The notes beneath the pieces are model-generated. The model had not been told where the DNA came from, did no database searches, and saw nothing but the letters and a program-made list of their open reading frames with translations. This document shows positions 238 through 4,402 of a stretch of 9,876 nucleotides of DNA, in pieces. The position numbers and the translations under genes were made by a program. The stretch is from contig JAUXIQ010000045.1 in the NCBI GenBank assembly GCA_030620925.1, forward strand, positions 1 to 9,876. The letters run 5' to 3'. The stretch's first letter is position 1. The number at the start of each line of letters is the position of its first letter. This DNA is from JAUXIQ01 sp030620925 [NCBI: Nitrospinota bacterium]. Its GTDB lineage: Bacteria; JAUXIQ01.

Positions 238-1458
238 CTATTCCCGGGCCTCCATTATCTCCTCTTCGCTTCTCAGAGCCTCCTCGCCGGGGATTACCAT
301 CAGATTTTTGAGGATGGCGAAGGGATAATCCGGAGAATGCATGGTGGTGCCCCACATGTAGGGCGCCGTACTCTGTCCATCGAACTCGCGGATGGTTATG
401 GGGCCTATGGGAGTATTCAGCGTCATCCCTCTTAGAGCGTCTATAACCTCATCCGTATCCGTGGTTTCGGCCTTCTCGATAGCCGCGGCCAGGAATTTAA
501 TCACGTTATATCCCGACAATGCACCGTTGCCTGCATACTCATCCCTGCGCTTTTTATATTCTTTGGCAAAGGAAATGTTCGCTGCGGTTGCTGGAAAATA
601 GGGTAGATAGTAGGCGGATGCGTATATGCCTTCAGGCATCTCATCCTCCAGGGCCGACACCACGTCCAGATCGCCGGCGGCGAAATTCATGTAGTTAATT
701 TCCTCAAAGAGGTCGTGGGTTTTGGCCTGTTTGATGAAGGCTATGGCGTCTTCGCCCCACAGGGAGCTTATCACTACGTCCGGATCCGCCTCCATTATGG
801 CTGTTATATATGAGCCGAAGTCCCCCTCTCCCAATTTGGGCCACGCTTCACCAACAAACTCCCCCCCCGGCTTGAGTTTCTCGAGGTAGTCGATGAAATC
901 CTCAATAACCCGATGGCCGTATTCATGGTCGGGGCCGATGGTGTAGTAGGTGGTCCAGGGTTTGTCTTTGGCGAAGATGGCCCCGGACCTGCCGAATACC
1001 GTGGTGTTGGTTGTGGTCCTTGCCACGTAGCGATGGCCCTTCTCGCCGGTAAGCGCCGCGGTTTGGGAAATGCCGCTCAGGAACAGCACTTCATTTTCTC
1101 TGGCCACTTCGGAAACAGCCAGGGCCTCGGCATCGCTTATGGCTCCGGCCAGGAAATTCACCTTTTCCTTCAATATCAGTGACCGAGCCCCCTTCACCGC
1201 CACACCGGGTTTGAGTTTTGTCTTCTTCACTATCAGCTTCAGCGGCCTATCCAACACGCCCCCCCGGGCGTTGATCTCATCGACCGCCATTTTCATGCCC
1301 TCAACCGCGGGCTTGGTATAGACCGCAGCATAGCCGCTCAGTCCCCATAGGACACCGATTTTTATCGGTTCAGCCGCGTAGGAAGCCGTGGGTAGAATTA
1401 AGGCTAAAGCAAAGGCAAGAGTCAGCACTGCGGCCCTGATGTGAATCGAATATTTCAT
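238..1458 (-). CDS. Branched-chain amino acid-type ABC transporter substrate-binding protein
   Basis: Periplasmic solute-binding protein of the type 1 fold (Leu/Ile/Val and amide-binding group), which captures a small ligand and delivers it to an inner-membrane ABC permease. The ATG at 1458 is chosen because GGAGGGGG sits just upstream. An in-frame GTG at 1488 would add ten residues and has no comparable site. The 406-residue product starts with a signal peptide (basic Arg8, hydrophobic 9-22, likely cut after Ala28 in ASYA-AEP) and has no lipobox cysteine. The mature start IKIGVLWGLSG, then VEGMKMAVDEINARGGVLDRP, is the family signature. Length is typical. The ligand cannot be read from sequence; amino acids, amides and aromatic acids are all known for relatives. 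No intact permease or ATPase gene follows in the window, only a permease remnant. It is divergent from the oxidoreductase gene. Confidence 0.9.
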   Translation of the reverse strand: MKYSIHIRAAVLTLAFALALILPTASYAAEPIKIGVLWGLSGYAAVYTKPAVEGMKMAVDEINARGGVLDRPLKLIVKKTKLKPGVAVKGARSLILKEKVNFLAGAISDAEALAVSEVARENEVLFLSGISQTAALTGEKGHRYVARTTTNTTVFGRSGAIFAKDKPWTTYYTIGPDHEYGHRVIEDFIDYLEKLKPGGEFVGEAWPKLGEGDFGSYITAIMEADPDVVISSLWGEDAIAFIKQAKTHDLFEEINYMNFAAGDLDVVSALEDEMPEGIYASAYYLPYFPATAANISFAKEYKKRRDEYAGNGALSGYNVIKFLAAAIEKAETTDTDEVIDALRGMTLNTPIGPITIREFDGQSTAPYMWGTTMHSPDYPFAILKNLMVIPGEEALRSEEEIMEARE

Positions 1459-1848: not shown

Positions 1849-1906
1849 TACGAGAACGTCCTGACTGACACCGTATTTCAGCTTGTGGAAAAAGGGAGGA
1901 GGAGCC

Positions 1907-3196
1907 ATGGCCGGGAAATTCAAATACGTGATAATCGGCAACGGCGCGGCGGGCATAAACGCCCTGGAATCAATACGTCGGGTGGATAAGGAGCCCCGGG
2001 CGGCCATCATATCCTGTGAGAGCGAGCTGGCCTTCTCCAGAACTCTGCTTCCTTACTTCGTGGAAGGCAAGATAGATGAAGAGAAAGTCTTCATCCGGGA
2101 TGCGGAATATTACAGCCGGATGAACGCCGAGCCTGTTCTGGGGGAGGTGGCGGGGATCGATTTCAAAGCGAAATCGGTAAGCCTGGATGGCGGAAATGAA
2201 ATAGGCTACGACAAGCTGCTCATCGCCACCGGAGCCGCACCCACCCTGCCGCCCATAAAAGGGCTGGACCGCGAAAAGGTTTTCACCTTGTGGACGCTGG
2301 ACGACGCCCGTAACGTCATCTCCGCCTCCAAAGGGATCAAGGAAGTGGTAATAATAGGCGCGGGGCTCATAGGAGTACAGTCCTCCCACGCCCTGACCGG
2401 CCGCGACCTCCGGTTCACACTTATCGACGTTGCAGACCATATCCTCCCCCGCATACTGGACCCCGAAGGGGCGGCGATGGTGCAGGGCTTGGTGGAAAGC
2501 GACAAAGTCAAGATAATCACCGGCGCAAACATCACCGAAATAGCCAAAGGCAAAAAGGGCCACACACATTCCATCAAGATAAAAAGCAAAGGCAGTGTTA
2601 ACGCCGACCTAATCATCGTGGGCACCGGCGCCAGGCCGAACGTCTCCTTCATAGAGGGCAACGGCATCGCTGCAGATGCCGGCATCCTGGTGAACGAAAA
2701 GATGGAGACCAGCGTCCCCGACGTATACGCCGCGGGGGACGCCGCCCAGGGGCAGGACGCCCTCAGCGGGGAACAGGTGGTTAGCGGAATATGGACCACC
2801 GCCGTGGAGCAAGGCTCCGTCGCCGGATACAACATGGCGGGCCGCCCCATGAACTACGAGGGCAGCCTCTCGGTAAACGTGGTGGACCTCTTCGGGGTGA
2901 CCGTCGCTTCCGTGGGGGAGACGGGAGACGGCCAGGGATACGATGTGGAGACCTTTACCGACAGCTCCGGAACCACTTCCCGCAGGGTGTTCGTCAAGGA
3001 CGGTGTGATCAAGGGGGCGGTATTCATCGGCCGCTACAGCGACGCCGGGATCATTCAGTGGCTGGTTCGAATGAAGGCGGACGTCGGAGCCTGGAAGGGG
3101 ACCCTGGCCGGCCAGCCCCTCAACATGGGCAAGGTTATGCTGGGCATAAAAGAAGTCGAGCTGGGCCCCCGCTGGCCTTTGCCCGACAAACAGTAA
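1907..3196 (+). CDS. FAD-dependent NAD(P)H oxidoreductase (rubredoxin reductase/NirB-like class)
   Basis: Cytoplasmic flavoprotein expected to pass electrons from NAD(P)H through FAD to a partner. The ATG at 1907 follows GGGAGGAGGAG closely. An in-frame TTG at 1883 would add eight residues upstream of that site and is unlikely. Of 429 residues, GNGAAG (11-16) binds the FAD ADP moiety, ATGAAP (107-112) is the conserved linker, and GAGLIG (151-156) is the dinucleotide fold. Asp174 at the end of its second strand favours NADH over NADPH. AAGDAA around Asp278 closes the FAD site. The last 110 residues resemble the small C-terminal domain of rubredoxin/nitrite reductases. Only one cysteine (Cys37) exists, and the NADH-oxidase/CoA-disulfide-reductase redox position reads SRTLLPYF with no Cys, so dithiol chemistry is unlikely. 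No ferredoxin, rubredoxin or CO dehydrogenase gene is adjacent to name the partner. Confidence 0.85.
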   Translation: MAGKFKYVIIGNGAAGINALESIRRVDKEPRAAIISCESELAFSRTLLPYFVEGKIDEEKVFIRDAEYYSRMNAEPVLGEVAGIDFKAKSVSLDGGNEIGYDKLLIATGAAPTLPPIKGLDREKVFTLWTLDDARNVISASKGIKEVVIIGAGLIGVQSSHALTGRDLRFTLIDVADHILPRILDPEGAAMVQGLVESDKVKIITGANITEIAKGKKGHTHSIKIKSKGSVNADLIIVGTGARPNVSFIEGNGIAADAGILVNEKMETSVPDVYAAGDAAQGQDALSGEQVVSGIWTTAVEQGSVAGYNMAGRPMNYEGSLSVNVVDLFGVTVASVGETGDGQGYDVETFTDSSGTTSRRVFVKDGVIKGAVFIGRYSDAGIIQWLVRMKADVGAWKGTLAGQPLNMGKVMLGIKEVELGPRWPLPDKQ

Positions 3197-3227
3197 CAGC
3201 TTACACCAAAGGATAAAACCAACCTGT

Positions 3228-3244
3228 TCCCGCCTTTGGCGGGA
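3228..3244. repeat. Perfect 7-bp hairpin, dispersed-repeat type
   Basis: TCCCGCC, loop TTT, GGCGGGA forms a tight hairpin 32 nt after the oxidoreductase stop. On the minus strand it follows GTCATTCTGAAT, a context that recalls dispersed palindromic repeats of many bacterial genomes. It may also slow or stop transcription, but no T run follows it. Confidence 0.55.
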
Positions 3245-3268
3245 TTCAGAATGACACTATGCGGAATC

Positions 3269-3293
3269 GTAGGGGCGGGTTTCAAACCCGCCC
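3269..3293 (+). repeat. REP-like element 1
   Basis: The GTAG head at 3269-3272 is directly followed by a perfect 21-base palindrome (GGGCGGGTTT, C, AAACCCGCCC). A short GTAG head plus hairpin is the layout of REP sequences mobilised by RAYT-type transposases. No RAYT gene is in the window. Confidence 0.55.
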
Positions 3294-3298
3294 TCTTG

Positions 3299-3321
3299 GG
3301 GCGTATGCAATACTGCCCTAC
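3299..3321 (-). repeat. REP-like element 2, inverted to element 1
   Basis: On the minus strand, GTAG (3321-3318) is followed by GGC, a bulged A, GTAT, loop TGC, ATAC, GCC. This forms a 7-bp stem with one bulge. It faces element 1, with both heads on the outside, as in a paired REP unit. Confidence 0.5.
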
Positions 3322-3332
3322 AATCGCGGCTA

Positions 3333-3353
3333 TCCCGCGGCAGGCGGGACTAC
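3333..3353 (-). repeat. REP-like element 3
   Basis: On the minus strand, GTAG (3353-3350) is followed by TCCCGC, loop CTGCC, GCGGGA. Its outer arms are identical to those of the hairpin at 3228-3244 and the palindrome length (17) is the same, so the two may be related. Confidence 0.5.
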
Positions 3354-3361
3354 CCACAACC

Positions 3362-3383
3362 GTAGGAGCGGCATCTTGACGCG
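3362..3383 (+). repeat. REP-like element 4
   Basis: GTAG (3362-3365), GA, then GCGGC, loop ATCTT, GACGC: a 5-bp stem with one G-A mismatch. It resembles the common GTAGGAGCGGC palindromes of other bacteria. It stands head to head with element 3, eight bases away. Confidence 0.45.
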
Positions 3384-3442
3384 AGTGTTTCCCACCAGTG
3401 AAATGAATCCTGTCTTGATAGCTTCAGGAAACCCCAGGGGGT

Positions 3443-4402
3443 CTACGTTTCCATGTACTGGCCGAAGTTGCGGAACTTCTGTTCCCGCTGTTTGATGAGT
3501 TCCTGGGGGGAAAAGCAGATCAGCTCTGCGAGGTGCCGGCGAATGACGCGGCGAAGGATGGAGGCGGCCATCTGGTGGTTCCGGTGCGCGCCGCCGGGAG
3601 GTTCTTTGACTATTTCGTCGATGAGTTCATACTCCTTGAGGTCTTTGGCCGCAAGCTTCAGGGATTCCGCAGCCTGTGCGGCCAGCCCGCTGTCCCGGTA
3701 AAGGATGGAGGCGCACCCTTCGGGCATGATCACCGAATAGACGGAATACTGCAGCATGAGCACGCGGTTACCCACGCCCAGCCCCAGCGCGCCGCCGCTG
3801 CCGCCTTCTCCTATGACCACCGATATTAAGGGGACGGTGAGGGTGGCCATCTCCTTCAGGTTCCTGGCGATAGCCTCGGCCTGGCCTCTTTCCTCGGCGC
3901 CCAGGCCGGGATAGGCGCCCGGAGTGTCTATGAAAGTGATGACCGGCCTGTTGAACTTCTCCGCCATCTTCATGAGCCGCAGGGCCTTGCGGTAACCCTC
4001 GGGGTGAGGCATGCCGAAATTTCTGTAAATCTTCTGCTTGGTGCTGCGCCCCTTCTGCTGACCGATGACCACCACCGGCTTCCCCTCGAAACGGGCCAGA
4101 CCTCCAATCACGGCATGGTCGTCTCCGAAGAGCCGGTCGCCATGAAGCTCCACGAAATCGGTCATCATGAGTTTGATATAGTCCTCGGCGTAGGGCCTTT
4201 CGGGGTGCCTGGCCAGCAGGGTTTGCTCCCAGCGGTTGAGCTTGGCGAAGATATCGCGCCTGAGCCGTTTGGCCTTCTTCTGGAGTCGCTTCACTTCGGC
4301 GGTCAGGTCGACACCCTGAGCCCGGGAGACCTGCTGGAGCTCCTCTATTTTGGTTTCCATCTCGAGGATGGGTTTTTCGAAATCTATCGGTTGCGCGGCC
4401 AT
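3443..4402 (-). CDS. accA: Acetyl-CoA carboxylase carboxyltransferase subunit alpha
   Basis: Alpha half of the carboxyltransferase that moves CO2 from biotin on AccB to acetyl-CoA, forming malonyl-CoA for fatty acid synthesis; it works as an alpha2-beta2 complex with AccD. The product is 319 residues, the length of the E. coli protein. A charged N-terminal helical part (about 10-65) precedes the crotonase-like core: HGDRLFGDD (87-95), the [10 protein letters not shown] block (157-166), then [10 protein letters not shown] (198-207), whose backbone amides hold the acyl-CoA oxyanion in this family, and MPEGCASIL. The ATG at 4402 is preceded by TAGGG about nine bases upstream, a moderate site. 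It follows dnaE by 115 nt, the dnaE-accA order also found in E. coli. accB, accC and accD are not in the window. A 19-bp palindrome lies 31 bases before the start, and the 3' side runs into a hairpin cluster. Confidence 0.97.

What the first reader, a model, noticed from the sequence alone, without database searches (positions are those of the whole stretch)
3261..3385. Cluster of four GTAG-headed hairpins in alternating orientation (REP/BIME-like) between two convergent genes
Seen directly: GTAG followed at once, or after two bases, by a palindrome occurs at 3269 (+), 3321 (-), 3353 (-) and 3362 (+). The palindromes differ in sequence but share the head and layout. Elements 1 and 2 have heads outward and form a 53-bp unit; elements 3 and 4 stand head to head eight bases apart. 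REP sequences tied to RAYT (TnpA-REP) transposases carry a GTAG or GGAG head and occur as inverted pairs. The inference is that this is a composite built by several REP families, possibly also serving as a two-way transcription barrier.
Basis: partly seen in the sequence, partly recalled or inferred. Interest (0 to 1): 0.6.

Follow-up and report, generated by a model that had tools for sequence, protein, structure and literature searches.

The report
Composite of REP repeat hairpins
Between two bacterial genes lies a cluster of short hairpin-forming repeats of a known transposase-linked type (REP sequences), which occurs in the same order elsewhere in this genome; it is a new example of a known kind of mobile DNA repeat, not a new system.

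Summary
In detail: all four GTAG heads lie where stated. The units are dispersed repeats: element 1 (A) has 35 exact copies in the window's genome, reversed control 0; element 4 (D) has 33 at up to 3 mismatches, control 0. A and element 2 (B) form a head-outward heterodimer at 19 of 39 A units examined. The A-B-C-D order recurs at four other sites, C being replaced by another palindrome at two; flanks differ.

No complete RAYT transposase gene was found in this fragmented MAG, whose contigs under 3 kb seem masked. One RAYT fragment was, on contig C62, lying between REP ends. In other genomes A and B-like palindromes lie inside or beside RAYT genes, and genomes with A more often carry one (10 of 15 against 93 of 370), partly by construction.

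GTAG REPs, their dimers, and REPs inside RAYT genes are published (PMC3733652, PMC6006769). Verdict: a REP/BIME mosaic, new member of a known kind. The transcription-barrier idea found no support and was not properly testable.

The parts
3228..3256 (-).
   Evidence: Inverted repeat I5; TGTCATTCTGA stands 9-16 bp from A at seven sites including this one
3269..3293 (+). Unit A: GTAG head plus 10-bp perfect palindrome GGGCGGGTTT/AAACCCGCCC
   Evidence: 35 exact copies in own genome, control 0
3298..3321 (-). Unit B: GTAG head plus GGGGCGTAT/ATACGCCCC-type palindrome, partly degenerate in this copy; with A forms the 53-bp head-outward heterodimer
   Evidence: A-B order with 3-4 bp spacer at 19 places (17 with B, 2 with variant B2)
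3322..3353 (-). Unit C: GTAG head (3350-3353) plus TCCCGC/GCGGGA hairpin, followed by a tail reading CGCGATT on the - strand
   Evidence: Alignment of five sites; the hairpin is replaced by another palindrome at two of them
3362..3384 (+). Unit D: GTAG, two unpaired bases, GCGGCA/TGCCGC-type palindrome with one mismatch in this copy
   Evidence: 33 copies in own genome at up to 3 mismatches, control 0
3269..3386 (+). A-B-C-D composite of about 118 bp, the block that recurs as a whole
   Evidence: Same order at C256, C192, C68 and C127 (the last two with another palindrome in place of C); flanks dissimilar
1883..3196 (+). Left-hand convergent gene, pyridine nucleotide-disulphide oxidoreductase family
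   Evidence: Pfam Pyr_redox_2, E 9.2e-54
3443..4402 (-). Right-hand convergent gene, accA (acetyl-CoA carboxylase carboxyltransferase alpha)
   Evidence: Pfam ACCA, E 1.3e-147

Best explanation
The cluster is a REP/BIME mosaic: non-autonomous hairpin repeats that a RAYT (TnpA-REP) transposase recognises as single-stranded DNA by the GTAG head and stem-loop, cuts and rejoins. A and B are REPs of the long canonical type (three G-C pairs at the stem foot) and form a heterodimeric REPIN; C and D form a head-inward pair, D having two bases between GTAG and stem. The four together recur as one roughly 118-bp block, so the block probably spread as a unit, or was rebuilt by repeated insertion into itself. 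Shown: repeat nature, copy numbers, recurring order, a RAYT fragment between REP ends in the same genome, and residence of A and B-like palindromes in RAYT genes elsewhere. Inferred: mobilisation by RAYT, movement of the block as a unit, and that the fragment's parent gene was the enzyme at work here.
For: Copies on both strands with controls near zero. BLAST of 3225-3395 against the own genome: 78 matches at E<=10, six others covering 110 or more bases. Same A-B-C-D order at four other sites with dissimilar flanks. Own genome, contig C62: a profile of 11 RAYTs has one match, 387-461 (-), E 4.6e-5; a profile of only the stretch after the internal-REP loop gives E 4.6e-7 among 9,982 held peptides, best reversed-peptide control 2.1. 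The fragment lies between an A copy (529-553) and a truncated A head (381-394). Relatives of a RAYT in 103 of 386 genomes; of 30 parsed RAYT loci 25 carry a GTAG-headed palindrome inside the open frame and all 30 have one inside or within 400 bp. A: 10 of 15 other genomes have this RAYT against 93 of 370 without A, one-sided Fisher P 0.001; B: 5 of 6 against 98 of 379, P 0.006. Published: TnpA-REP acts on GTAG-headed hairpins (PMC8266576, passages).
Against: No Y1_Tnp gene in the own genome at E<=0.001; only a fragment of about 25 residues, without HUH or the tyrosine region. Head lost in 17 of 33 loose matches to the C hairpin. Five of 15 other genomes with A lack this RAYT subfamily. The co-occurrence is partly by construction: in G009, G097, G281 and G288 some of the counted A copies, and in G157 both B copies, lie within RAYT matches, and the RAYT query itself carries an A body. 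Only 4 of 18 genomes had a second copy of the RAYT-internal body within the 9-20 kb examined.
Confidence: 0.9

Rival explanations
1. Two-way transcription terminator or mRNA-stabilising hairpins between convergent genes; the repeats are kept for that function rather than as mobile DNA.
For: Location between convergent genes; strong folds on both strands, z -3.3 and -6.2.
Against: No terminator-like site with a T-run (0.3 expected in shuffles). Sites are not concentrated between convergent genes (8 of 49 clusters, 19 unresolved). Does not explain one conserved block with GTAG heads at unrelated sites and the same unit in distant genomes. Folding strength follows from being palindromes.
Confidence: 0.15
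2. A MITE-like element of 118-160 bp moved by an unrelated transposase, in which the REP-like hairpins are internal structure.
For: The block recurs with constant order and nearly constant spacing; AATCGCG at 3322 and CGCGATT after D in other copies are inverted repeats around the C-D half.
Against: A, A-B, C-D and D also occur apart from the block, and A or B-like units in other genomes and inside RAYT genes. No terminal repeat common to both ends of the whole block was seen by eye.
Confidence: 0.08
3. Binning artefact: the repeat-bearing contigs come from a second organism in the MAG.
For: Repeats are sparse in 20 contigs sampled without regard to repeats; the bin has 3.55% contamination.
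Against: G+C of repeat-bearing stretches (mean 0.549, 41 segments) is close to that of the 15 readable sampled contigs (0.541). Sparse hits are expected at about 40 copies per 2.5 Mb.
Confidence: 0.07

Closest known systems
GTAG-tagged REP super-family (Di Nocera et al. 2013, PMC3733652; abstract, opening part, found passages and sections 5, 6, 7, 15, 16 read)
   Same: GTAG at one end, short stems, head-outward and head-inward dimers, dispersed copies, several families in one genome; two families with an unpaired dinucleotide after GTAG, as in D.
   Different: The parts read do not describe a four-REP block of mixed bodies repeated as one. Figures are not held, so consensus letters could not be compared and no family number is given.
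REPs of TnpA-REP subclass 2.4 (PMC6006769; section 13 and passages read)
   Same: Long canonical stem with three G-C pairs at the foot; double-foot forms also occur in this genome (C29, C90); REPs lie in frame inside RAYT genes between HuH and Y motifs, as published.
   Different: Only a RAYT fragment, not a complete gene, was found in the window's genome. Assignment to subclass 2.4 rests on these features, not on a tree.
BIME / REPIN of E. coli and Pseudomonas
   Same: Mosaics of inverted REP pairs; E. coli pairs unlike REP types too (PMC8266576, passages).
   Different: Here four REPs of two layouts recur in one fixed order.

Membership tests
GTAG-tagged REP | GTAG at one end of a palindrome of 20-40 bp | tested here: met
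   Four units in the window; B and D with stem mismatches
GTAG-tagged REP | GTAG conserved among copies | tested here: met
   A 39 of 39 (biased by how stretches were fetched), B 18 of 21, B2 2 of 3, D 13 of 15, Dg 3 of 5; C only 16 of 33 with a loose pattern. Met for A, B, D; not clearly for C
GTAG-tagged REP | Many dispersed copies on both strands | tested here: met
   A 19+16, D 17+16; moderate copy number
GTAG-tagged REP | Mainly intergenic, near 3' ends of genes | tested here: inconclusive
   23 intergenic, 7 inside an ORF call, 19 unresolved of 49 clusters, crude ORF calls
BIME/REPIN | Inverted REP pairs with regular spacing | tested here: met
   A-B at 3-4 bp, 19 copies; C-D or Dg-D at 7-9 bp in the five aligned sites
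REPtron (RAYT with its REPs) | RAYT gene with the same REP in the same genome | tested here: inconclusive
   Own genome: only a fragment between REP ends on C62, no complete gene; contigs under 3 kb appear masked. Met in other genomes, e.g. G009
CGTC-tagged REP (unit F) | CGTC or TGTC followed by an 8-9 bp stem beginning with A and T | tested here: not met
   TGTC is followed by about eight bases outside the stem, then a 7-bp stem (feature from PMC3733652 section 6)
Intrinsic terminator | Hairpin followed by a T-run | tested here: not met
   0 found in 3150-3480
REP | Cleavage and mobilisation by a cognate RAYT | not testable with these tools
   Needs biochemistry or a strain series

The most novel reading that the evidence does not exclude
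Four REPs of two different layouts, normally served by different RAYT classes, have fused into one roughly 118-bp element that spreads as a single unit and swaps its inner palindrome (unit C) while keeping the frame around it.
Probability: 0.3. Interest if true: 0.45.

Novelty: new member of a known kind. Interest (0 to 1): 0.3.

Why it matters
It extends GTAG REPs to a genome whose nearest held kin share only the domain, and gives a countable case of a mixed-body REP block recurring in fixed order, useful for asking whether REPs move singly or as mosaics. The C62 fragment shows a RAYT gene cut at REP sequences, and the shared palindromes inside RAYT genes of other genomes would let one pair REP bodies with transposases by sequence.

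Tried and rejected
Own-genome RAYT by Pfam family: none. By one protein: five weak matches; on re-reading, two on C94 and one on C59 fall on the REP-encoded peptide, C434 shows no RAYT frame (a later score of 12 bits, E 0.07), but C62 is a true RAYT fragment, confirmed. Nearest relatives by accA: best 61% identity, so no empty-site comparison. Neighbourhood test of REP bodies inside RAYTs: outside copies in 4 of 18 genomes (20 regions examined), insensitive. Peptide words VGATHASP, VGAGFKPA, VGAGLKPA, VGATHASPL: no paper in the held library. The REP-inside-RAYT pattern first looked new but is published for subclass 2.4 (PMC6006769). A first unit classifier mislabelled A as E and was redone. 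One search used stretches chosen for holding the repeat, so it is not an unbiased rate; one search is used instead. The 30 RAYT loci are best matches to a query that itself carries an internal REP, so 25 of 30 may be too high; 31 loci were given, L257 gave no parsed gene and was dropped; no control on other genes was run. An earlier parse of other Y1_Tnp loci read HUH frames at only some loci and is not counted.

Full report
What is there. Between the stop of an oxidoreductase gene (1883-3196, +) and the stop of accA (3443-4402, -) lies a 246-bp convergent gap. A fifth hairpin, TGTC-headed on the - strand, lies at 3228-3256. I call the units F, A, B, C, D from left to right. B and D are imperfect copies of their families here.

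Is it more than chance? A lone GTAG-headed hairpin is not: in 20 contigs taken without regard to repeats (5 of them all N), 7 of 331 GTAG sites had one, and the short motif GTAGGRGC was found 4 times against 9 for its reversed control. The longer units are: GTAGGGGCGGGTTT has 42 places in the own genome against 1 for the reversed control, the full A unit 35 against 0, D 33 against 0 at up to 3 mismatches.

How the units combine. In 41 stretches of the own genome gathered around the repeats, 39 A units were found, 19 of them paired with B or its variant at 3-4 bp, heads outward; F stands 9-16 bp from A at seven sites. C-D pairs stand heads inward. The order A-B-C-D recurs at C256 and C192, and with another palindrome in place of C at C68 and C127; sequence outside the block differs between sites apart from F, which the window shares with C256. 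Heads are intact in A 39 of 39, B 18 of 21, D 13 of 15, but in only 16 of 33 loose matches to the C hairpin. The A figure is biased, since most stretches were fetched by a pattern that contains the head.

RAYT in the own genome. The Pfam Y1_Tnp family gave no match. A profile of 11 RAYTs from other genomes gave one, C62:387-461 on the - strand, E 4.6e-5. It reads HHGLPEIVRARKTFSSRRINE, the conserved stretch that follows the REP-bearing loop in RAYTs; a profile of that part alone scores E 4.6e-7 among 9,982 held peptides, against 2.1 for the best reversed peptide. One end runs into a truncated A head (381-394); the other side has an A copy at 529-553. HUH and tyrosine regions are absent. I read it as a RAYT relic cut at REP sequences. 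A complete gene may be missing from the data: the assembly is a 2.50-Mb MAG of 445 contigs, 89.5% complete; the five sampled contigs shorter than 3,000 bases all read as N and the fifteen longer ones do not; and 11 of 33 A sites lie within 300 bp of a contig end against 10.7% expected.

RAYT in other genomes. G009 has A-type palindromes upstream of and inside a RAYT gene. Of 30 parsed RAYT loci, 25 had a GTAG-headed palindrome inside the open frame, after the HUH motif, and all 30 had one inside or within 400 bp (best matches to a query that carries one itself, no control on other genes). Body A lies inside L233 (the query gene), L234, L235 and L238, and a B-like body, differing from the window family in the loop, in L260. 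Exact A occurs in 16 of 386 genomes including the own one. Ten of the 15 others have this RAYT against 93 of 370 without A (one-sided P 0.001); for B it is 5 of 6 against 98 of 379 (P 0.006). These P values are a guide only: genomes share ancestry, some counted copies lie in the RAYT genes themselves (G009, G097, G281, G288; G157 for B), and the query carries A.

What it most likely is. GTAG-tagged REPs in a mosaic: A-B a heterodimeric REPIN of the long canonical type, C-D a head-inward pair, D with the two-base spacer layout. RAYTs act on such hairpins as single strands (PMC8266576, passages). Mobilisation here is inferred. REPs in frame inside RAYT genes are already published for subclass 2.4 (PMC6006769, section 13), and GTAG REPs, their dimers and several families per genome in PMC3733652 (abstract, opening part, passages and sections 5, 6, 7, 15, 16).

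What is not supported. The barrier idea: no T-run terminator in 3150-3480; site types among 49 clusters were 8 convergent, 9 tandem, 6 divergent, 7 inside an ORF call and 19 unresolved, by crude ORF calling. Filing F as a CGTC REP: its layout does not fit. The idea that a REP inside a RAYT matches REPs nearby: an outside copy was found in 4 of 18 genomes, within 9-20 kb.

Verdict. Observation confirmed; a real REP/BIME mosaic; new member of a known kind, modest interest.

Noticed in passing
L228 / G000:C62:381-553 (- strand): A RAYT gene fragment (HHGLPEIVRARKTFSSRRINE) in the window's own genome, running at one end into a truncated A head and with an A copy on the other side.
   Followed up: yes
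Published for subclass 2.4 in PMC6006769.
   Followed up: yes
G203:C2:2300414-2302047: Three RAYT matches in tandem on the same strand, one with a stop inside.
   Followed up: no
L224 (G000:C328), about 938-965: A double-foot GTAG palindrome of another body (GTAGAGACAATTCATGAATTGTCTCTAC) in the own genome.
   Followed up: no
G000:C392:1762-1814: An A-B pair falls inside a 479-aa ORF call, possibly a REP in a gene or a wrong start.
   Followed up: no
G000:C106:9487-10058: Dense cluster of REP units near a contig end.
   Followed up: no
window 3256-3285, - strand: One promoter-like match (9 of 12) overlapping unit A; 0.1 expected in shuffles.
   Followed up: no
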